A stretch of DNA of 64,000 bases, from positions 355,001-419,000 of the forward strand of contig JACEFZ010005531.1 in NCBI GenBank assembly GCA_014155875.1. The letters are read 5' to 3'. The notes under the pieces were generated by a model. It saw only the letters and a list, made by a program, of their open reading frames with translations, was not told the DNA's origin and searched no databases. A program made the position numbers and the translations under genes. Positions 50,615-63,705 of the stretch are shown in pieces. The DNA comes from Cepaea nemoralis (taxonomy: Eukaryota; Mollusca; Gastropoda; Stylommatophora; Helicidae). Within the stretch, counting starts at the first letter, position 1, and each line of letters opens with the position of its first letter.

Positions 50615-53426
50615 TGTCAACAACTTAACTTTGCCAGGCATACAAGGATTCCGCTTTTGTACCACGAAATGAGAACGTACAAAAGAATACAAATATAATA
50701 CAAGTTTATTAGCTAGTTGTACAGTAGCTCTGCGAGCGGATAACCACATCGATAATACACATGATGGTATATCGTAATGATGTTATGTGAGAGGTGATAT
50801 CGATGAATAAGATTTATCGGAGCTAAGACTAAGTCACAACTATTGCTATTGTCCTTTCTAAACAACAAAGTATTCATAGGGAATACGTCCGTCTGTCCTC
50901 TACGCTGTCGAGTCGCGGTCTGACGATCTTCGTGGCGTGTCCAGCCACGATCAGTTAACTCTTCGTGCATCAGCTAGTTTGCGTGCTTGGAGTCCCAGCA
51001 CGCAGTTAGTAACTGGTCAACTGTTTCAAGTTACTGCTGTTTTGTTGACACTTCTCGTGAAGCGGGTTTCCCCACTCGATTGTGGGCAACTCCAGCTCAC
51101 GTATTACAGTGTCCCCTTTTTGGACACGAGTGTGTCCAGTGGGAGAACTATTTATAGTTCTCACTCGTGCTTCGGTCCATTCTGCCCCAATTTCCTAGAT
51201 AACTATGCTCTCCTGATCCCACTAGGTCTCTTTCTGTCAACGTCCTAGATACCTAGGGGAATGCAATTTGGGTTCATACAGGCAACAAACTCCGTTCTGA
51301 TACTATCTGACATAATTTATTTACAGTAAGCTGGCGAAGAATGGTTTTCGCAGCCAGCGACGTGGCGAACATGATCATAGTAGTTCACAACAAATCCATC
51401 ATACATAATCATTACAACAAACTCTATCATCTATCTATCGAGTGAGTAACACTCCTAAATACACTTGTGTTTAATCTATCAAGTCCCCCTTAAGTTAAGC
51501 CCTGTTGCTTATTCGATGTCCAGTCGGCGTCTGCCCTCTAACGTGTCTCGGACACGGGCTGTAACTCTCCTCAAGCTTCCCGTGGAACAGGTCGTGGCAC
51601 ACGGTCAGCGTGTCCACGGAGCTGTAGGCGAACTGACCTTCTCGAAGGCTCTAGATTGTTCAAGCATTCGAGTGTGTCTCCCTTGTATTGGGGTTATGTC
51701 CCTTCTCGAGTTCCCTTCTATCTTTATGTTCCTACCGACTCCATGTGAGACTCTGACAGGAGTCCCCTTCCCCCGCTTCTATGGGTTAGTATATGGTAAT
51801 TAGTCTGCACTAATTCTGTCATAGGATCACATGAAGTTGGTGTTTGGTAGTTTCGTGGATGGGAACCTGGCCATCTATATATTTGCACTATTAACTCATG
51901 TATTTCACCATACAACAATCCAGGGTGATAGCTGAAGAGCCCCTATCTCTTCCATATCCTTAAACATGCTTATCCGACCGAAGTTCCGTGACGCTTCCAG
52001 TTGTTTTTGCAACCGCGCCCTTCTCAAGTATCCATATGATACCAGATATTAAACTCTGTGTTAGAGAGGTTTTAACAAGACAAATTGTCTTGGCTTATTT
52101 AAGACACCTGCAATTCTTGTCCTGAATGTGTATTTTGATACACTTTTACTTCCGTATGTTTTATAGTGCTGAATATATATATGTACTCTTGTTTTGTCCC
52201 AAGTAACTACTAACGTTCATGTTTGCCTGTTAGTGTGTTTACTGCTTTGTTACTTGCTCTAATAAACTGTGTGTGATTTAATTGTTAGTGTTTAGTTTTA
52301 TGAGTATGTCCTACCCAATGTCTAAAGTGTGTGCTACCTGTGTGTATGTGGTGTGTAGTACATCTCTAAGTGTCACGAGCTGGAATATCCCTTGTCATGA
52401 ATTACATAATCTGTGTAACGCATGTACAGGGTATTCAAACAGTGATTCTTAGAGTGAACCTATTTTATCTAACACTAAACATGTATACACAATTTTAGAC
52501 AAGTGTTACATTTTACACTCAAAAACGCAGACAAATTAAAATAAATACTTTTTTGCGTACAATTTGTCCGCTCAGTATATCGTTCTCTCATTTAATTCAT
52601 TCACTCTCTGATTCGCACCCCTTTCATTCAATATAATAATTTGTTAGAATATACAAATTAAGTATTGTAAATTAAGTGATGTAAATGTTGTCGCCCTTGG
52701 AAAAAGGAAACTGGCGATATGCTATATTCAAAGCGTCAAGTACTATCTGTACTGGTGATAAGAAATGGTTTATAAGTTAAATTGCAACAATTGTATTGGG
52801 AGAAAGTTTTAACTATGAATGAAAATGTTTGTGACATATTATGATAGAAAATGTACAATTTACATGTTCACATATTTTATGTATATCACAAAGCACAAAT
52901 GTAATACATATTTAACTAATAACATTAAATTAATTAACTCCAACGACGATCTGTGTGTTGTCGTTCTTTCGTCCGTGTATTGTTCCAATAATGTTTACAG
53001 TTCGTAGGTAACGTTTTGGTGTCACATTCTTGTGTTGTCTCTCATATGTCGTAATAGTTATAGTATATCGCTGCTTGTATGTGCAATGTTCTATTCCGTT
53101 AGTTTGCAAAGTCAATTGAAATTACGCGTATGCACAGTTATTAATATTCGCATGGTAACTTTCAGTTCTGTGATTGATGAAATAACTTCACAAATGTTAA
53201 TATCCACAGTTCGGAATGTTTTTGATGTAGTGCTAATTGCCACTGTGGCTCAATATAGTTAACGGTTCTCAAAGTTGCATGTCTGTGATAGGTATAAGTA
53301 GAGTATTAAATCAGCTGTCGACACTTCCAACTTCAAGTTCTTCAGTAAGTGTAGAGGTACACTCTTTTATGCAACAGACTAAAATATCACAGCTTATCAT
53401 ATGGCCACTAATTATTGTAAATAGTG
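50613..53426. other. Unassigned; may include 3' part of the gypsy element
   Basis: The right end lies just 3' (minus sense) of the RNase H at 53.43 kb, so an untranslated region or LTR could be here. I could not find a matching direct repeat. 50.9-51.8 kb is GC-richer than its surroundings. No gene recognised. Confidence 0.4.
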
Positions 53427-54405
53427 TTAATCTGCTGGTGCATTGGTTAGTCGTGATAATATGTCAGTGATTATATTATCCGTACCTTTAATGTGACGGA
53501 TTTCAAAGTCGAAATCCTGAAGAAGAAGACACCATCTTGCTAATCGATGGTTCTTGGGGTTGCCTTCTTTCATCACCAGCAGTGGCGAATTATCTGTCAG
53601 GACAACGAAATGGGAACCTAAGAGGAACTTAGATAAACGACTAACACAAAAAACCAAACTTAATGCCTCCAATTCAGCTGTCGAATACTTGATTTCCGCT
53701 GTTTTCAGTTTACGGCTGACATACAGGATCGGGTATCTCACGTGTTCGTATTCCTGCATCAGACATCCTCCAATGGCGATCGCACTTGCATCTGTAGTTA
53801 ATATAAATGGTAAATCTATGTTTGGTAATCTCAATATGGGTGGATTCGAAAAAATGGTTTTTCAATTTGCAAATTGCATCCTCTAAACGGATACTCTTAC
53901 ATAATTTATCTGGTTGACTTTTGGTCAACAAATTTGAAAAAACTGATGTGAGTTCTGCCCAGTTTGGTATAAATTTGGCATAATAGTTTATGAGACCTAA
54001 AAGACTTCTGACCTGTTTGTTTTTTTGTTTTTTTTTTGGTAGTTGGTACTTGCAGGTTGAGAATTTTTGATACAATTCTATCATCCGTCAGTAGTTTACC
54101 TTCCGAAATCTTATGACCTAAGAAGTCTATTTGTTTAAAGCCTATTTCAACCTTGAAAGGTTTGGCAGTGAGTCCAAAAAGACGGATTTGATTAAAGACT
54201 TGTTGGAGTGTAACTAAGTGAGAAGTCATGGCTGAAGAATGGATACAAATATCACCTATATAGGATTGTACGTCCTTGATGCCGTGTAATAACAGTCTAG
54301 TTAATCTAACAAATGTGGCAGGTGCGTTTTTCAGGCCAAAAGGAAGATATTTCCATCCATATAAGCCAAGTGGTTCTGTGGTATCTATTAGTTTCATTGC
54401 AGTTC
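53427..54405 (-). pseudogene. Ty3/gypsy RT-RNase H fragment
   Basis: Minus-strand RT C-terminal half: MKLIDTTEPLGLYGWKYLPF, GLKNAPATFVRLTRLLLHGI, SYIGDICIHSS, IDFLGHKISEGKLLTDDRIV; a frameshift in an A-run near 54.03 kb; VRSLLGLINYYAKFIPNW; a second frame change near 53.83 kb; then RNase H LPFILTTDASAIAIGG, STAELEALSLVFCVSRL, VVLTDNSPLLVM and DNIITDILSRL, with all four acidic residues, ending at 53427. The RT catalytic box reads YIGD where YIDD is expected (codon 54254-54256), a lethal change. The 5' half is absent. It is a different element from 58-64 kb. Confidence 0.9.
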
Positions 54406-55225
54406 TTTGACAGGCTCTCCCTCCCTCTGTGTTGTGTTACAAACTTTTGAGTTGTGGGTGTAACACAAGTAGTAATCTCACCAAAAATTAGGGCTGTCTA
54501 ATTTTGTCAAAGACTGCAAGAGTTTTCTACTTCTGTTCTAGGCATAGGACAAGATCTCTCCTTTCCCTTGTCACACTGTTGTACTCCTTCACTTGGCTAA
54601 TTGACTAGCACATCACACTAGTACAGTTGGCTAGAGACTGTGCTCATACTAACATTATATTTCTTGGGAGTTTGTGTGAACCGGATCCAATGCCTTTTGG
54701 CCTGTCCTCAAATTGTTAAAAACTAACAACCCTTACAAAATTGCCCCTATTACGAGTACAATACATGAATAATATTCATGCTCCCATATAATATTTACTC
54801 CAACTAGTATACATGCTTTATGTGCTTTCGTTCACTTTTTTAGCTTCCGCTTGTGAAGAAATATTTTAGTGTTAAACTAAGGTTTTCAAGATTTTGTTAT
54901 GTCCCCTGTTTAAAGTAGTTATTCCTCATTGCAATTAATAGTGTCTGTATCTTTATGTGTTTGTTTTCCTGGTTGGTTGCGTGTTACTATAAAACTATAA
55001 TGTATTTACCTTACTAACATGTGACTGTGTCTATATCTACGTGTATGTAATCTTTTGAGCGCCGTAAAGCGGTTTATTGTAGTCACAAACGAGTGTGTAA
55101 GTCTGATGTATGACTACGCTACCGGTTTATGATGCTCAAAATATGTTTCCTATCTCTATCATCTAAGTATAGCAACTACACAGGTAAAAATAGAACAACA
55201 CATTGACACAAACGAATTACAACAT
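54406..55225. other. Unassigned sequence
   Basis: No coding match. A 5' continuation of the gypsy fragment is not visible. Confidence 0.4.
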
Positions 55226-56990
55226 CATCCTAGCAAATGGAATCACAATTTGTAAAAAGGTTATCATTTTCATAACTATACTATTATTACCATTGCTGGT
55301 TTTTAAATTAGCTGTTATAACCCTCAGTATGTCTCTTCTTGTCATTATTATTATTGTCATCATTAGTAAAAAAAAAAAAAAAAAACTTTTCCCCCATGTG
55401 CCCCCTTCCCCTCGCTCATGTTTCTTGTTGCCTTTGCTGATACCCACACCGGTTTGGTTCAAATAATTATCCTGCCTTTACCATCATTGCCCAGATAGTG
55501 GTGATGAAGGCATTGGTAGAATGGAACAAATTGGTGAGAGGATGGCAAGGGAAACAAAAATGTAAAGATTTCCCCCTTTCCTTGTTTAACCCCCATTCAC
55601 ATGTAAATGTGTTTTTAAAAAATGGAAAATGCAAATGGTTAAATTTCCTATGTTGTAAACACAAAATATCACAGATATCTCCAGAGTAAACACAAGTACT
55701 CTTCTTTCTGATTTTAAAATTTAGTACACATGAGTGCGAAGAAGAAACAAGAAGATGTGAGTGAATAATGAATGAATGAATACAAAACCACATATGTTTA
55801 CCAAACCAATGAGATTGAAAAAATTTGTGCAAATACAGATGCTTGTTTTAATTTTTTCCAAAAAAAAAAAAAAAAAAAACCATTAAGGGAAAAAAAGAAG
55901 ATACCCTTACAAATAAGACAAAATAATAAGCAAGGAGTAAAAGATAACCAACTCCCTTTACTTCTAGAACATTGCTTGCTGCAATTTATATGTACCTGCT
56001 ATGCTATGCTAACATCATTCCTAGGAAAATCATTCTAGCAAATGGAATCATTGCTGTTTATTATCATTGCTGTTATCACCCTTAGTGGGTTTGCTTTTTG
56101 TCATTATTATTATTGATGTATTTAGTGTTTATTTGCATTATTATTACTGTTATCATTATTAATATATAACCATCATCTCCCATGTTACCCCCCCTTTCAC
56201 ATGTAAATGTTTTCAAGAAATGAAACATGAAAATGGGTATTTTCCTATGCTATAAACACAAAATATCACAGATATATCTCCAGAGTAAACACAAGTACTC
56301 TTCTTTAAGATATCAAATTCAGTATACATGAGTGCGAGAAAGAAACAGGAAAAAGTGAGTGAATGTTGAATGAATAAATACAAAATCACAGATGGTTACC
56401 AAACCAATGAGATTGTAAATATTTATGTTGATACAAATGCTGGTTTTATTTTCTCCCTTTTTTTTTTAAAGGAAAGGGAAAAAATGAATGAACCCTCACA
56501 ATTAAGACCAAAAAATAAGCAAGGAGAAAAAAGATAACCAACTCCTTTTACACCTACTATATTATTGATCAGGGCAGGTTGCAATTGTATGTACCTGCCA
56601 TGTTTTAACACCATCCCCAAGAAAATCGTTTTAGCAAATAGAACCACATGTTTTGGAAAATGTGATCATTATCATAACTACTATTATCATTGCTGTTATT
56701 AGCACTGCTGTTATCACCCTTAGTAGTTTTTCATTCTTTTATTATAGATGTATTTCATGTAAACACCATTCCTAAGAAAATCATTTAGCAAATGGAATCA
56801 CATGTTTAACTATTATTATCATTGCTGTTATTATCATTGCTGTTATTGTTATCACCCTTAGCAGTTTTTATTCTTTGTCATTATTATTATTTATGTATTT
56901 GGTTTGTTATTTGCATTATTATCATTGTAATCATTATTAATATATATGGATTTGTAAACCCGTAAACTGTCACATCCCCCTTTCCCACCT
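55226..56990. repeat. Long-unit tandem repeat, four uneven units
   Basis: TAGCAAATGGAATCAC or a close variant starts units at about 55231, 56036, 56633 and 56788 (lengths near 805, 597, 155 and 200). Shared landmarks in units 1 and 2 are CACATGTAAATG, CACAAAATATCACAGATAT, CTCCAGAGTAAACACAAGTAC, ACCAAACCAATGAGATTG and ATAAGCAAGGAG. TTATTATCATTGCTGTTA is shared by units 2-4. Differences are indels and moderate divergence. No coding function. Confidence 0.85.
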
Positions 56991-58406
56991 TTTTGATACT
57001 GTGATTGTTGTTTTTCTGCTGCCGCCCTCACCTGTTGGTTCTTAACATTTTTGCACCGCCATGTTTCATCAACACCGAGGGGTATTGGTGGTATTTGGTA
57101 GGAGTTTTGGAGCTGACAGGAGAGCTAGGCAGCAGGGGAAATAACAACGGCGCACTACCATCACGCGTTTGTTTTAAAATATTTCCTTACTACAATGTCA
57201 ATGAAGAAATGTTCAAATGTATAAAATGTTGGAAATTTTGCGCATATGTCACCTACACGCCCACATGCAACGCTCTGTAAAAACACGAACAATACAATTT
57301 GCAACGATTTTAACACACAATAAAAGTTTTAAAAAAAAACGAATTACAACAACTCGCATTGTGCGGCGAAAAAGTTCCGCACCCTGTTTCACTCATCTGT
57401 ATTTTGGTTCATTCTGTCTCTCATTCACACATCTTTCATTTATCTTTCATTCTACACAGGTTTTTAAAATACATAATCTGTCATTAAAATATGGTTGTAG
57501 AAAAAAAGCATGGATGAACAATATATATGGACAATAAATAGTTGGCTGAATTTACACAGGTTTCCATGCTAAATGACTGTGCTCTAGTTTTACACTCGTC
57601 ATTTCTGTACAAAAATATATATATTTAAGAGGATTGTTTGCTACCAATCCTGTGGGTACTAACTAATCTAGCTAAACTTTTCTAAGTTGGTGTGCTGAGC
57701 TACGCTAACCTAAGGGAACTAATCTAACTAAATGATGAAAATGGGGAAAAATGTGTTTGTTACCTTATTATAAAATGGTATTAATTTCTAAATGATGGGA
57801 TTAATTTATGAATAATGTTCTAATTAACTAATTGTCTAAAAATGTGTTTATATGATGATAAACTAAAATATTGTTTCCTAAGTTGAAAAAAATATGATGT
57901 AGAAGTTAAACTAAATGAGTTTTTACCTAAATGTAAATGACTTTTAACTATCTCGGCTCCAATTCGGATCCTGCCTAATTTGCCCTTTTCTATTAAATGA
58001 TATAAATAAGGTTATAAGGGTGGTTGTACACTCTATTCTAACTACAAAAATTTGATGTTACATGCAACTGAAATAAAAACATAATATTATACATATCACA
58101 TACAATTGATTTAAATCTAAATTACCTAATTACATCCAGGTGTGTTGACGAAGTAGCGTCCTTAGTTGACTCTTGATGAAAAACAGAGTTTATTTAGACC
58201 AAGTCTGACAAATACGCTCTCATCCTGGGTAACGTTGGTAAATATCGTTCTGCTCATGGTTGCATCTAGGGTGGTGGCGTAGACAAATCATAACGTGTCT
58301 GTTCATTTTCACTAGCACTGACACAGTTATTACTTAGCAAGTTTAGGCGATTCACGATGGTACACGCACTACAGTGTCTGTCTTCATCACATAAGGCACT
58401 AGTTAA
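56991..58406. other. Unassigned; expected 3' region of the gypsy element
   Basis: In minus sense this follows the RNase H stop. I see no polypurine tract or sequence matching 63.7-64.0 kb that would prove an LTR. The 91- and 106-codon plus frames at 57.0-57.5 kb have no family features. Confidence 0.4.
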
Positions 58407-59202
58407 CTATAGTGTCACTGATTTTGGTGATATTGGATCGCTCTCTTCTCGTACTTCTGGTATATTGATCTGAGAAGGTTGGCTAAGCGTGTCCGCCAAA
58501 ACGTGCATGCTCCCCTTGATGTGATGTATCGTGAACGAATAATTTTGCAGGATCAAAGACCATCTGTAGATCCTGTTGTTACGATGGACTCCCGGCTGCA
58601 TCACTGTCAGCGGTGAATTGTCAGTTTCAATGACAAACTTGGTACCCGCTAAGAATCTATGAAGCTTCTGGACGCAATAGATGACGCTCAAAGCCTCTAA
58701 CTCAGAGACTGAGTATCTCGATTCAGCAGGGGTAATCTTCCGGCTTACATATGCAATCGGGTGAAAGATTCCCTCATAGAACTGTCCTAAAATTCCAGCG
58801 ATGGATATGGCATTTGCGTCTGTACGAAGAAAATACGTAAGATTGGGGTTAGGCAAGCGCAAGATAGGTACAACGCTGAACATACGTTTTAATTTTGATA
58901 ATGCACCAATTAACTCTGCATCCTGTACATTTAATTTCATAGATGCTTTCAAAACATTAGAAAAAAAAAACGCTGGTGATTTCAGCTAGATTGGGTATGA
59001 ACTTATTGTAATAATTCACTAGACCAAGCAAGCTTCTGACCTGCTTCTTGGTCGTCGGCATGGTTACGTTCAAAATTTTGCTGACAATTTTCTCATCTGT
59101 CTTAAGTTGGCCTCGGGTGATCGTATGGCCTAGAAAATCAATTTCTTCCATCCCCAACTCAACTTTGGTTGGCTTTACAGTAAGACCGAATAATCTCAAT
59201 CT
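58407..59202 (-). pseudogene. Ty3/gypsy (long copy): RT C-terminal and RNase H
   Basis: RT resumes after the foldback with LFGLTVKPTKVELGMEEIDF, LGHTITRGQLKTDEKIVSKI, KKQVRSLLGLVNYYNKFIPN; then a frame break at an A-run (58.96 kb); RNase H with LTYFLRTDANAISIAGILGQ (Asp), SVSELEALSVIYCVQKLHRF (Glu), FVIETDNSPLTVM (Asp) and HVLADTLSQ (Asp). The stop is at 58407. RNase H is the last recognisable domain: no integrase follows, because it lies upstream of RT. Confidence 0.92.
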
Positions 59203-59587
59203 AAATGCTGAGCACAACCCACTACTGGCAACGCCGATCGCATTATGGTATAAACCTAAGGCCTATCCACGTCAATATGGAAGCACTATACTCGAGTTTC
59301 GCCCTCATTTGAGCTCGTCAGTAGTGCATATCCCTGACCGGATCCGGAAACAGTCCCGGATCACGCGTGTGAAGCGGGTGTCGATTCACACGCGTGATCC
59401 GGTACTGTTTCCGGATCCGGTCAGGGATATGCACTACTGACGAGCTCAAATGAGGGCGAAACTCGAGTATAGTGCTTCCATATTGACGTGGATATGCCTT
59501 AGGTTCATACCAGAATGCGATCGGCGTTGCCAGTAGTGGGTTGTGCTCAGTATTTAAATTTCAAATCCCGAAACAACCACATAATTC
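59203..59587. mobile_element. Foldback (near-perfect palindrome) insert in gypsy RT
   Basis: Left arm 59204-59373 and right arm 59385-59554 are inverse complements over about 170 bp with only a handful of mismatches, separated by an 11-base spacer; about 33 unpaired bases follow the right arm. The insert is flanked by ATCTCAATCT at 59193-59202 and 59588-59597. Removing insert plus one duplicate joins RHVFDRLR to LFGLTVKP in frame. A 9-11 bp duplication is typical of Mutator-like elements, but no transposase or known end supports a class. Confidence 0.92.
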
Positions 59588-60457
59588 ATCTCAATCTATC
59601 GAAGACATGTCGCAATTTCTGTAAGTGTGATGTCCAGTCTGCGGTATGGACACAAATGTCATCAATGTACGTCGCTGTATTTGTCACTCCGTGAAGAAGG
59701 TCCCTGGTGAGTCGGACAAAAGTGGCTGGAGCATTACGAAGGCCAAAAGGAAGGAATCGCCACTCATAAAGACCTAGAGGTGTTGAGATTGCTGTTAAAT
59801 GGATAGACAGTGGGTGCATCAGGACTTGCCAGTATCTTTCGTAAGGTCAAGTTTAGAAAAAAAACGAGAGGTGGACATATCAAGAATGAGATCCTCACGT
59901 GATGGAATTGGCTCTGCATCTACCTTGGTGATATTATTTATCCTGCGAAAATCAACACAGAGGCGGACCGTAGAGTCCTTTTTCTTCACAAGGACGATAG
60001 GAAAAGAAAATTCTGACTGCGACTTTTGGATTATTCCACTCGACTCAAGATTTAGAAGTTCTTTGTCGAGATTTTCCCTATAACTCAATGGGATGGAATA
60101 CAGTCGGCATTTGATAGGGGTGTTATCAGTCAGAATGATGGAGTGTTGTATTCTGTCAGTCCTACCTCGAATGTCGGAAAAAATGTCTCTGTATTCTGTC
60201 ACTAACTCTATTGTCTGTCGTCTTTGCTCGTCTGTAAGTCTCGGTTCTATTCGTATACTTTCAATTGTCCCAGTTATGTCTACTGTCGAGACTGGTAGTT
60301 CTGTGTCATCGTCATCTATCTGATTGAGTACTGTGGTTGTACTACCTGTGTGTTCTGTTTCCTGACTAGGTGTGTATGCGCTGTCGTCTTCTGTCGCTCT
60401 AACTAGTGTAGTTGCGCTATGTACTGTCTGTCGTCGGGTTGCTTTGTGTGGGTGCAT
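59588..60457 (-). pseudogene. Ty3/gypsy (long copy): linker and RT N-terminal part
   Basis: An acidic, Thr-rich linker (TEHTGSTTTVLNQIDDDDTE) leads to IELVTEYRDIFSDIRGRTDR, IQHSIILTDNTPIKCRLYSI, ELLNLESSGIIQKSQSEFSF, PIVLVKKKDSTVRLCVDFRR and RFFSKLDLTK (motif A Asp). After a frameshift near 59.82 kb: LGLYEWRFLPFGLRNAPATF and TATYIDDICVHTADW, with an intact YIDD near 59.66 kb. The RT lies directly downstream of the integrase C-terminus, not of the protease. Confidence 0.92.
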
Positions 60458-60529
60458 TCTGTTCGTCTGTCGTCAGTTCTTGTCGTTAAAAGTAAGGCTT
60501 CAGCATGTTGATATGAAATATCTGTAATT

Positions 60530-61880
60530 TTTGGTTTATCGATATTTCATAATCGACATCTGATATCTTTCATACCACTCTGAATGGCCCTTGCCATGCA
60601 GTTAATAATAGATTACGTTTATCTGGTAGTAAAAGTAGAACCTCTTGATTGGGTTCAAGGTGTAGGGTTTTGGCACCCTTATTGGCATAATGGCGGTAGA
60701 TCTGGCCTTTTCTCTCCAAAGATGATTTGGCTATTACACACGACTTCATAATTTTATCGCGTGTTTCTGTTACCATCGCGTACGGTGTTACAGGGGTTGG
60801 ACTATCTAGTGTACTCGTGATTAACTGATGGTAAATCATTAGGATTTTCATCATCATTATCATTAGGTACACGAGGGTTCGCCCCATACACTAATTCAAA
60901 TGGCGAGAAACCCGTACTTGAGTGCGGAATCTCTCGATAGGCAAACAGCACAGTTGGTAACAGAGTATCCCAATCAGCTGGGTTCTCTGCTGTTACCTTT
61001 GCCAGCATGTGTTTCAGGTCCCCGTTAATCTTTTCTATGATTCCATTGCTGGCAGGGTGGTAGGCAGTAGTAAAATGTTGTTTAATCCCTAGTAATTTTG
61101 TATGGGCTTGCGTAGCAGCCGATATAAACTGGGTTCCCCGATATGATAAAATCGTTCGAGGGAATCCGAATCGAGAAAATAGATGTAAAAACACATTAGC
61201 TACATCTTTGGAGGTAATATATTTCAGGGCCACCGCCTCGACCCACCTCGTACAGAGATCCACGAGGGTTAGTATGAATCGGTTTCCTTTGTTCGACACC
61301 TGATTCAGGGGTCCAACAATATCCACCGCTACACTTTCAAACGGTCTAGAGGCCAACATTGAAGGTTGGACCTCAGCTGTTGCATGCTTTCCCTTTCTCA
61401 CTAAATGTTGACAAATGGTACATGACCGACAAAATAATTTTATATCGTTACAAAACTTAGGCCAGTAGAAACGTGCCAAAATTCTGGCTCTCGTTTTGTC
61501 ATAAGCCAAATGTCCAGCAAACTGTGAATCGTGTGCCATCTTTAACACGTTTTGTCGATGTTTCAAAGGTAGCACCGTACGGATGAACTTCATGGTTATT
61601 GGTGGTGTAATACCGCGTGAGAATTCCATTGTGGAGTCTAAAATACCAGGAGGCATTTTTGGTTAATTTGGCCTTCTCACCTAAACGTTTAAAATAAGGT
61701 GTGATGGTTGGATCGGCGCGTTGTGCCTCGATAAACTCTTGTCGAGTGGTATTGTCAATAGTACCGCTAGGTGTTAATAATTGTAGCTTTTCATCTTGTA
61801 GGTCATTTTGATGTGTTTGAGACTCTGGCCTAGTTACTGCATTAGCCGTGTTGGTGTGTTTCCAGGCTAATATCTCGTCA
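60530..61880 (-). pseudogene. Ty3/gypsy (long copy): integrase
   Basis: An N-terminal tether (EILAWKHTNTANAVTRPESQ ... SWYFRLHNGIL), one frame change, then the HHCC zinc domain (AHDSQFAGHL ... CRSCTICQ: H42, H49, C79, C82 from Met at 61656). The core has D112 (VAVDIVGPL), a D-to-Y change at position 172 (ILSYRGTQF, codon 61141-61143) and E208 (NGIIEKING). The spacing 172-208 fits D,D35E. The chromatin-side module follows after another frame change: PNQEVLLLLPDKRNLLLTAW, QGPFRVV (GPY/F-like) and FHINMLKPYF. It is catalytically dead by the D-to-Y change alone. It precedes RT. Confidence 0.93.
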
Positions 61881-62423
61881 TCAGTGCAGTGTTAGCACTC
61901 TTGGTAGGCATCCTAAAATAAGGTCAGTACAGGGATCTTGCAAAATAGCGCACGTAAATGTGCCGGAAAGAAAAGGGGTGTTTATACGGACTTTTGCTAG
62001 CGGATATTTCTCAATATTGCCAGAAAAAGTGCGGCATTTGACAAAATCGCCCGTATAATCCTCTGGGTTAACTAGTTCTTTCCTTACACCGATTAAAGTA
62101 CTCTCGCTATCCAGTAAACATTGGCATGGATATTCATTGACCAGTGCATCGTGGAACTTTAAATTGCCTCTGGAGGCTAAAGCTGAATTAGCATCTTCAT
62201 TAGAACATGGAACAATATGACCACATTTGAGCTTACCGTCCGTATGGAACTGGTGACAAGTATCACATTTATTGAAGTCTAAAATATCAGTAACAAAAGC
62301 AACACTTTCACACTCATTGAATGGTAATACATTTTCGTTCTCGCACTCAACTTCACTGTCATTATCAGAGGATGTATCAATCAGCACAGCATTGCTGGCT
62401 TCATTCTCTGTCTCCCCAAACAC
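61881..62423 (-). pseudogene. Ty3/gypsy (long copy): protease region
   Basis: The frame opens with an acidic segment and a Cys/His cluster (FNKCDTCHQFHTDGKLKCGH), then YPCQCLLDSESTLIGVRKEL (aspartic protease active site; DSE at 62103-62108 where DSG or DTG is the rule) and, near the end, CTDLILGCLPR, equivalent to the family's ILG box. It ends with a stop at 61881, beside the integrase. The Glu in place of Gly next to the catalytic Asp would probably impair activity. Confidence 0.82.
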
Positions 62424-63705
62424 TTAGAAGAATAGTGTCCATACGACGAACAAAAGAAGCACTTAACCGCTCGTTTATATGAATTCCGTTTGTTTTCCTG
62501 CTTCTTAATCATCATTTCAAGATGTGCTAGGGTATGAAGGATTTTTATCACACATCGAGAATCTTTGGTGATATAAATGGCAGTATCCACACTGGGGTGG
62601 TTTTTGGTATGGTTTATCTTTCTTCTCATAAGATTTCTGGTTGAAAGATCTGTTTGGTTGGTTCTTTGCAAACGCAGTAATTTCAGAATCATGTATTGAT
62701 GACTTAAATACATCTCGGTTGGAAGAGAAGTACGCCTAACCACGTTTCTCCAGCTGATCTAGCGATTCAGTGTCTGCTTGTTGAAGGAACTTAGCAAAAG
62801 GAATTGGCACTGTGGATATCACTTTATCCATAACCATTAACTTGTCAAAACTCTTTCCTACTTTCGCTGCCTTAAGCCATTTACTGAATGTACTTTGAAC
62901 GTTAGATACATAATCTAAGAAAGTTTCATTTGGTTTCGGTCTAATTTGTGAGTACTGGATCTGATATCCAGGAGCATCGAGTAGAAAATGCTGCATGATT
63001 CTGTCATGAATATATTGATAGTTGTTTCTTAATTCTGTTGGTATAGACTCAATAACTTCTAAGGGCTCCCCAGATAAATTTCTCATATAGATCATTGCCC
63101 AATCTTCTAATGGTATTTTCTTATATCTAAGCTGAAACTCGATATTCTCGGTCCAAGCTGAAATTGAATCTCCTTGACTATAGGGCTTGATAATCCCTTT
63201 ATATTTAGAAAATTTATTCTGCTCTTCCTGACTCTTCTGTTTAGTGGTAGCTATTTGAATGTTTGAGTCAATTTCCATTTCTTTCATCTTTATCTTTGTT
63301 TGAGTCTACATCTATTTGCTTTTGCTTTATCTCTAACTCATTCTGTTTGGTGGCGTCGTCTAATTCTAATTGCTTTTGTTTTATCTCTAATTCTTTCTGT
63401 TTGGCGGCGTCGTCTAATTCTAATTGCTTTTGTTTAATCTCTAATTCCTTCTGTTTGGCGGCGTCGTCTAATTCTAATTGCTTTTGTTTGGTTGTTTCCT
63501 CTAACTCTCTCATCTCTTTCTGATGCTGTCTTTCGAGTGCTCGTTCATCTCTCTCTATTGCAGCTTTTCTTTCTGTTTCTTCTTTGTATTTTTGTTCTGT
63601 TCTTTGTGTTTCTTCTTTGTATTTCTGTTCTGCCCATTTTTCTAATTTCTCCCCTGTATGGCCTAGGTTTTAGCCAGCTTGGATACACTCACTTAATGTT
63701 GACAT
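62381..63705 (-). pseudogene. Ty3/gypsy (long copy): Gag with coiled coil and zinc knuckles
   Basis: Starts MSTLSECIQAG, then a stop near 63670, then KLEKWAEQKYKEETQRTEQK and a charged coiled coil built of an 18-residue unit (KQKQLELDDAAKQKELEI) repeated three times plus a partial copy (63.29-63.48 kb, 54-bp DNA period). After a frame change near 63.28 kb: capsid-like FSKYKGIIKPYSQGDSISAW, FLDYVSNVQSTFSKWLKAAK. A further frame change leads to Cys/His knuckles CGYCHLYHQRFSMC and CFFCSSYGHYSSKC (CX2CX4HX4C). The protein would pack the element RNA; this copy is broken at several points. Confidence 0.85.

What the first reader, a model, noticed from the sequence alone, without database searches (positions are those of the whole stretch)
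58407..63705. Ty3/gypsy element with integrase upstream of RT (Gmr1-type domain order)
Seen: on the minus strand Gag, protease, integrase (HHCC, D-35-E core, GPY/F-like module), RT (YIDD) and RNase H follow in this order. Known: most Ty3/gypsy elements have RT-RNase H before integrase; copia has integrase first; Gmr1-type elements are gypsy by sequence but copia-like in order and were first noticed in deuterostomes. Inference: this genome, probably a protostome, holds a Gmr1-like lineage.
Basis: partly seen in the sequence, partly recalled or inferred. Interest (0 to 1): 0.82.

Follow-up and report, generated by a model that had tools for sequence, protein, structure and literature searches.

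The report
Gmr1-type retrotransposon in a mollusc genome
A decayed copy of an abundant "jumping gene" in a mollusc genome carries its integrase ahead of its reverse transcriptase, the unusual order of the Gmr1-like group already reported in fish, frogs, crustaceans and a worm, and related copies encode a capsid protein that resembles the SCAN domain of vertebrate gene regulators.

Summary
On the minus strand, Gag, protease, integrase, RT and RNase H follow in that order. It is not a tandem artefact: 57 of 57 other loci examined, from at least two families, have integrase before RT. Of five copies whose ends were examined, two lie between full LTR pairs (683 and 675 bp) with 5-bp target duplications. 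The window copy is decayed: broken frames, protease DSG->DSE, second catalytic Asp of integrase changed to Tyr, and a 384-bp palindromic insert in RT. The host looks like a mollusc by haemocyanin type. RT and integrase are Ty3/gypsy; the order is that of the Gmr1-like group, reported in protostomes in 2013 (decapods, PMC3587641) and 2021 (annelid, PMC8220671). So: a new member of a known kind. The extra point is the capsid: Gag matches Pfam's SCAN model, above the curated cut-off in a sister family, which extends the published SCAN-Gmr1 link to a protostome. No named Gmr1 reference sequence was available for a tree.

The parts
62736..63513 (-). Gag: charged repeat region (54-bp DNA repeats) and capsid with SCAN-like C-terminal lobe
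   Evidence: ORFs; repeats; SCAN match in 22 of 23 Gag pieces of the family, best E 5.7e-5, below cut-off; the window's own Gag alone did not match
62381..62743 (-). Gag C-terminus with CCHC zinc knuckle
   Evidence: Pfam zf-CCHC E 0.017, below cut-off
61881..62423 (-). Protease; active-site DSG reads DSE in this copy
   Evidence: Session PR profile E 5.2e-19; motif comparison
60802..61656 (-). Integrase: H2C2 zinc domain and rve core; second catalytic Asp is Tyr
   Evidence: Pfam H2C2 1.2e-18, rve 6.6e-12; Ty3 integrase 1.3e-31; motif
60570..60887 (-). GPY/F-type integrase C-terminal domain
   Evidence: Session GPY/F profile E 2.4e-16
59588..60457 (-). Reverse transcriptase, first part, with YIDD
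   Evidence: Session RT profile E 3.8e-51 and 1.3e-32
59204..59587 (.). Palindromic insert in RT, 384 bp, flanked by 11-bp duplications TAGATTGAGAT (59598-59588, 59203-59193)
   Evidence: Inverted repeat; duplications and length; uninterrupted site in 7 other copies
58957..59203 (-). Reverse transcriptase, last part
   Evidence: tblastn to other copies; ORF
58407..58952 (-). RNase H
   Evidence: Pfam RT_RNaseH 4.5e-27
57339..58406 (-). 3' non-coding tail, first part
   Evidence: Aligns to five other copies
55206..57338 (.). 2,133-bp insertion in the 3' tail, with low-complexity TTATTATC repeats
   Evidence: Gap in alignment to other copies; repeats
54374..55205 (-). 3' tail, second part, and the first few tens of bases of the 3' LTR
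51235..54373 (.). 3,139-bp insertion inside the 3' LTR, carrying an RT/RNase H remnant (54373-53430, minus) of a related element
50615..51234 (-). Rest of the 3' LTR, ending TTGACA
   Evidence: 84.7% and 91.5% identity to LTRs of two other copies

Best explanation
It is a decayed copy of a multi-copy LTR retrotransposon of the Ty3/gypsy kind with the Gmr1-type order (Gag, protease, integrase, RT, RNase H), in a mollusc genome. Shown: the domain order, LTRs of about 680 bp and 5-bp target duplications in two other copies, a purine-rich tract before the 3' LTR, and TGGTGTCAGAAG 14 bases after the 5' LTR. Inferred: the family moves as other LTR retrotransposons do. Its RNA is made from the LTR and packaged by Gag, a tRNA (Leu by recall) primes DNA synthesis at the TGGTGTCAGAAG stretch, protease frees integrase from between itself and RT, and integrase inserts the DNA copy. 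The order within the Gag-Pol chain is what sets it apart from ordinary gypsy elements. This copy, with the damage seen, should no longer do this by itself.
For: Domain order in the window. Same order in 29 of 29 other loci fetched, out of 136 other matches to its integrase, in 12 of 12 fetched out of 102 matches to a canonical-order query and in 16 of 16 fetched out of 150 listed H2C2 matches. Full LTR pairs in 2 of 5 copies whose ends were examined, 98.6% and 98.3% identical over their longer pieces, with 5-bp duplications. Ty3 is the nearest solved relative of integrase and of the RT of another copy. Among 120 listed RT relatives, 59 have readable order and all 59 have integrase first; among 120 listed integrase relatives, 15 have integrase first, 4 RT first and 101 are unreadable. 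On the integrase tree the order changes once over 23 order-known rows. SCAN-like Gag. Mollusc-type haemocyanin domains.
Against: No named Gmr1 sequence was at hand, so the clade itself was not tested. Support for the integrase fork that holds all integrase-first rows is 94 by SH-aLRT, not starred, from a quick tree. No RT-first rows were available for an RT tree. The SCAN match of the window family is below Pfam's cut-off, and the window's own Gag alone does not match. Of the five copies with end pieces, C4766 has only part of a 5' LTR, no 3' LTR was found for C8387, and the outer ends of C5725 were not fetched. The loci were chosen by similarity and are no random sample. P0087, a canonical-order query, met integrases of this kind at 34-40% identity, and its loci could not be cut out, so the share of canonical gypsy elements in this genome is unknown.
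Confidence: 0.92

Rival explanations
1. A canonical gypsy element rearranged at this one locus, or two partial insertions in tandem, so that integrase only appears to lie first.
For: The locus is heavily rearranged: three insertions and broken frames.
Against: 57 of 57 other loci examined have the same order; two of them lie between matching LTRs with target duplications.
Confidence: 0.01
2. An independent switch of order in a mollusc gypsy lineage, so the resemblance to Gmr1 is convergent and not by descent.
For: No named Gmr1 reference was in the trees; the fish and sea-cucumber RT rows lie further from this family than the mollusc rows named.
Against: One change of order explains all 23 order-known integrase rows. 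A SCAN-like Gag, described in print for Gmr1-like elements, is found here too.
Confidence: 0.06
3. A Ty1/copia element, in which integrase lies first by rule.
For: Domain order alone.
Against: RT and integrase are nearest to Ty3 among solved chains; RNase H matches Pfam RT_RNaseH, and no copia-type family appeared among the matches.
Confidence: 0.01

Closest known systems
Gmr1-like Ty3/gypsy elements (Gmr1 of Atlantic cod; Goodwin and Poulter 2002, known here only from its title and citing passages)
   Same: Gypsy-type RT, RNase H and integrase; integrase upstream of RT; SCAN-related Gag capsid; open frames long enough for one Gag-Pol chain (up to 1,629 aa), as in fish Gmr elements (1,506-1,634 aa, PMC11117352 table)
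   Different: 8.8 kb with LTRs of about 680 bp in two copies and about 1.85 kb of tail between RNase H and 3' LTR, against 6.06-6.47 kb and LTRs of 337-518 bp in fish; mollusc host
Decapod Gmr1-like elements GyRex4, Gychoro2, GyMaja1, GyLiva4 (PMC3587641, passages)
   Same: Protostome hosts; assigned to the Gmr1 clade by RT/RNase H; [quoted passage not shown]
   Different: In the passages read, GyRex4 is an RT/RH piece and GyRex5 an INT piece that could possibly be one element, so the order itself was not shown there
LGF3 of the annelid Lamellibrachia luymesi (PMC8220671, passages)
   Same: Protostome member of the Gmr1 family in RH, RT and INT trees
   Different: Fewer than 25 elements there; here at least 137 integrase matches at 85% identity or more, the window included. 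A later annelid survey did not find that clade in its own analysis (PMC8556966)
Mollusc gypsy clades of PMC6238403 (21 clades, RT/RNase H tree; abstract and passages)
   Same: Mollusc hosts
   Different: The clade table seen names no Gmr1 clade; the one mention of Gmr1 found is in the background

Membership tests
Gmr1-like Ty3/gypsy | RT, RNase H and integrase are Ty3/gypsy by sequence | tested here: met
   Best solved relatives Ty3 RT 5e-51 (RT piece of L006) and Ty3 integrase 1.3e-31; Pfam RT_RNaseH
Gmr1-like Ty3/gypsy | Integrase upstream of RT in one pol, between two LTRs | tested here: met
   57 of 57 other loci examined; two LTR-bounded copies
Gmr1-like Ty3/gypsy | One clade with named Gmr1 elements in RT and integrase trees | not testable with these tools
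   No named Gmr1 sequence was available; the order label changes once over 23 integrase rows; the RT tree had no RT-first rows
Gmr1-like Ty3/gypsy | Gag capsid C-terminus related to the SCAN domain | tested here: met
   Sister family above Pfam cut-off (34.5 bits against 27, E 1.7e-8). Window family E 5.7e-5 at best, below cut-off, 22 of 23 closely similar members; window Gag alone no match. One reversed and two shuffled controls without SCAN. The predicted fold is a capsid but does not single out SCAN
Gmr1-like Ty3/gypsy | Single Gag-Pol reading frame | tested here: inconclusive
   Open frames up to 1,629 aa over the integrase match; their content from end to end was not read
Ty1/copia | Copia-type RT, RNase H and integrase | tested here: not met
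Canonical Ty3/gypsy | RT and RNase H upstream of integrase | tested here: not met
   Window; 0 of 57 other loci examined

The most novel reading that the evidence does not exclude
Integrase-first gypsy elements with a SCAN-type capsid are old in animals and have been a major, repeatedly amplified group in molluscs, overlooked because surveys sort gypsy clades by RT alone. The SCAN fold of vertebrate regulators would then be one late borrowing from a capsid type already present before protostomes and deuterostomes parted.
Probability: 0.4. Interest if true: 0.5.

Novelty: new member of a known kind. Interest (0 to 1): 0.36.

Why it matters
It shows LTR-bounded, high-copy integrase-first gypsy elements in a mollusc, where the main published survey seen here lists no such clade in its table. 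It also ties them to the SCAN-type capsid that vertebrates later took over for transcription factors. This makes the age of that capsid type, and the number of times the pol order switched, directly testable with mollusc, annelid and crustacean genomes.

Tried and rejected
Tandem partial insertions and a copia assignment were rejected (see rivals). An LTR search with pieces close to the coding region found nothing in 5 of 5 copies, because homology among copies mostly ran on to the outer edge of the pieces; pieces further out found LTR matches in 3 of 4 copies (full pairs in 2, part of one in C4766, none in C8387). A third frame was sought between RNase H and the 3' LTR: the longest sense-strand stretch without a stop in the tail pieces listed is 91 aa, the longest antisense one 125 aa (pieces read apart, so a frame across a cut could be missed). 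The window's Gag piece found no relative in the protein collection or among solved chains; a profile of its family found only chance-level chains there (best E 0.61). A first Gag model was too poor to use (mean pLDDT 53.5). A second, of the sister family, had mean pLDDT 71.8. Foldseek gave no match at E 0.001 or better; best was Arc at E 0.03, with a SCAN chain second at E 0.058. VIA-align Z went up to 9.8, in the range that the tool calls common for helical models. So the fold fits a capsid but does not single out SCAN. Arthropod haemocyanin gave no match, but its control was silent. Genome searches for further copies of the palindromic insert and for SCAN did not complete. Rfam and tRNA scans of the window found nothing. 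The SCAN paper of 2011 is not held and the Gmr1 paper of 2002 was seen only as a reference.
Full report
What is there. On the minus strand of 63513-58407 lie, in order, a Gag with a charged repeat region and a capsid-like part, a CCHC knuckle (weak), a protease, an integrase with H2C2 and rve domains, a GPY/F-type integrase end, RT with YIDD, and RNase H. Pfam matches are above cut-off for H2C2, rve and RNase H. The nearest solved relatives of integrase and RT are those of Ty3, with E 1.3e-31 and 5e-51 (the RT query was the stop-free RT piece of another copy, L006).

This copy is decayed. Its frames are broken. The protease motif reads DSE; of the 29 other loci that were fetched, 21 read DSG, one (L009) DSE and 7 were not read by the pattern. 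The second catalytic Asp of integrase is Tyr; 27 of those 29 loci fit TIL[SP]DRG and two were not matched. RT is cut by a 384-bp insert, 59587-59204, most of it a palindrome (arms 179 nt, 96% complementary), flanked by the 11-bp repeat TAGATTGAGAT. Seven other copies show the site uninterrupted; the rest were not matched by the pattern used. A foldback element that makes duplications of about 9-11 bp is the likely source (inference; Mutator-like by recall).

The element is larger than reported. Comparing end pieces of other copies gave the LTRs: 683 bp at C14037 and about 675 bp at C12034, with 5' and 3' LTRs 98.6% and 98.3% identical over their longer pieces. They begin TGTCA and end TGACA, with the first base of the C14037 copy changed, and are flanked by 5-bp duplications AAGGG and ACCCT (read). 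These copies are 8,811 and 8,852 bp long. Of the three other copies with end pieces, C4766 has part of a 5' LTR and a 3' LTR, C8387 a 5' LTR but no 3' LTR found, and the outer ends of C5725 were not fetched. Fourteen bases after the 5' LTR stands TGGTGTCAGAAG, which by recall fits the end of a leucine tRNA; GAGGGAGGGAGAGCC stands before the 3' LTR. Between RNase H and the 3' LTR lie about 1.85 kb (my arithmetic) in which the longest sense stretch without a stop is 91 aa, so no envelope-like gene was seen. In the window the 3' tail is split by a 2,133-bp insertion (57338-55206) and the 3' LTR by a 3,139-bp one (54373-51235), and the LTR ends at 50615. A 5' LTR remnant of 125 bp lies just outside the window and differs from the 3' LTR end at 3 of 125 compared sites; that is too short to date the copy.

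Is the order real? The integrase query gave 137 scored matches in the genome, the window included, all at 85% identity or more; counts are lower bounds. Of the 30 fetched loci one is the window itself; the other 29 all have integrase before RT on one strand, L014 with part of RT missing. A query of canonical order (P0039, RNase H then integrase) had 102 matches; the 12 loci fetched are all integrase first and about 90% identical to the window's integrase protein. Of 150 listed matches to Pfam H2C2, the 16 loci fetched are all integrase first; they show no DNA match to the window's integrase at the setting used, Gag of L069 is about 18-21% identical to the window family, and L063 differs from L069 (47% in Gag). 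In all, 57 of 57 other loci, none with RT first. These are chosen by similarity, not at random. P0087, another canonical-order query, met in part the same integrase loci, at 34-40% identity, and none of its 91 matches reached the RNase H part of the query; its loci could not be cut out. The share of canonical gypsy elements in this genome therefore stays open.

Relatives elsewhere. Integrase search: 179 proteins, 120 listed. RT search: 1,149 proteins, 120 listed. Some of these are partial, such as P0103, where RNase H and not RT follows integrase. Named hosts among integrase-first rows include Ruditapes, Plakobranchus, Littorina and Gasterosteus. The integrase tree (123 rows, quick method) has a fork with SH-aLRT 94 that holds the window, all 18 integrase-first rows and none of the 4 RT-first rows; over the 23 order-known rows, the window included, the order changes once. 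When unreadable rows were counted as a group of their own, labels were not clustered beyond shuffles, as expected since unreadable is not a trait. The RT tree had no RT-first rows and so says nothing on order. Nearest to this family by path are P0122 (Candidula), P0126 (unnamed, integrase first), P0125 (Bradybaena) and P0123 (unnamed); the smallest starred set that holds it has four rows, itself included. Both named genera are land snails (recalled).

Host. The genome has 81 matches to the haemocyanin domain PF14830 (mollusc-type by recall), clustered on eight contigs by my count, some with stops inside, and none to the arthropod type PF00372, where the control was silent. With the snail relatives this points to a mollusc.

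The capsid. Print holds that the vertebrate SCAN domain derives from Gag of Gmr1-like elements (PMC3424704; PMC4592553; PMC7231272; passages only). Here 22 of 23 Gag pieces of the window family match SCAN, best E 5.7e-5, below Pfam's cut-off; they are closely similar and count as about one observation. The window's own Gag alone did not match. In the sister family the match is above cut-off: 32.3 and 32.4 bits for L069 and L077, and 34.5 bits, E 1.7e-8, for a trimmed piece of L069; L063 is just below at 26.4. One reversed and two shuffled versions did not match SCAN. No Gag of a canonical gypsy element was scanned, so specificity to this group is not shown. The predicted fold is a two-lobed capsid and does not single out SCAN.

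Literature. Gmr1-like elements with integrase first were named for deuterostomes (title of Goodwin and Poulter 2002, seen). [quoted passage not shown] An annelid survey calls Gmr1 one of five clades present in several phyla but did not find it in its own analysis. Frogs and fish have them too. A survey of nine mollusc genomes mentions Gmr1 once, in its background; the clade table seen has none. Searches for Gmr1 with mollusc, crustacean, decapod and SCAN words and for the order itself showed me no paper on Gmr1-like elements in a mollusc or on a SCAN-type Gag in a protostome. I saw listings (20 of 27, 11 of 12) and passages, not full texts, and subscription journals are mostly missing.

Also in the window: a second, divergent integrase-then-RT remnant at about 34000-32900, and an RT/RNase H remnant inside the 3' LTR at 54373-53430, 63% and 53% identical to this family, with no integrase found by the session profile in the 2.2 kb after its RNase H.

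Verdict. A correct and careful observation, a well-supported interpretation, and a known kind of element. The modest new part is its abundance and LTR-bounded copies in a mollusc, and the SCAN-type capsid there.

Noticed in passing
window 34000-32900, minus strand: A second, divergent remnant in which an integrase C-terminus is followed by RT, about 23-38% identical to relatives in pieces: another integrase-first element in the same window.
   Followed up: partly
window 54373-53430, minus strand: RT/RNase H remnant of a related family lodged inside the 3' LTR of the main element.
   Followed up: partly
window 59587-59204: 384-bp palindromic insert with 11-bp target duplications, probably a foldback (Mutator-like by recall) element; the genome search for further copies did not complete.
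   Followed up: partly
window 57338-55206: 2,133-bp insertion in the 3' tail rich in TTATTATC-type repeats.
   Followed up: no
L038 about 1192 and window 57339: Two copies of the family lose homology at nearly the same place in the 3' tail, next to T-rich sequence; a shared insertion site or hot spot is possible.
   Followed up: partly
G000 contigs C3362, C25394, C21246, C26387, C6991 and three more: Clusters of haemocyanin domain matches, several with stops inside, which may be pseudogenes or haplotype copies.
   Followed up: no
L069:181-660 and L077: Gag of a sister family matches the Pfam SCAN model above its curated cut-off.
   Followed up: yes
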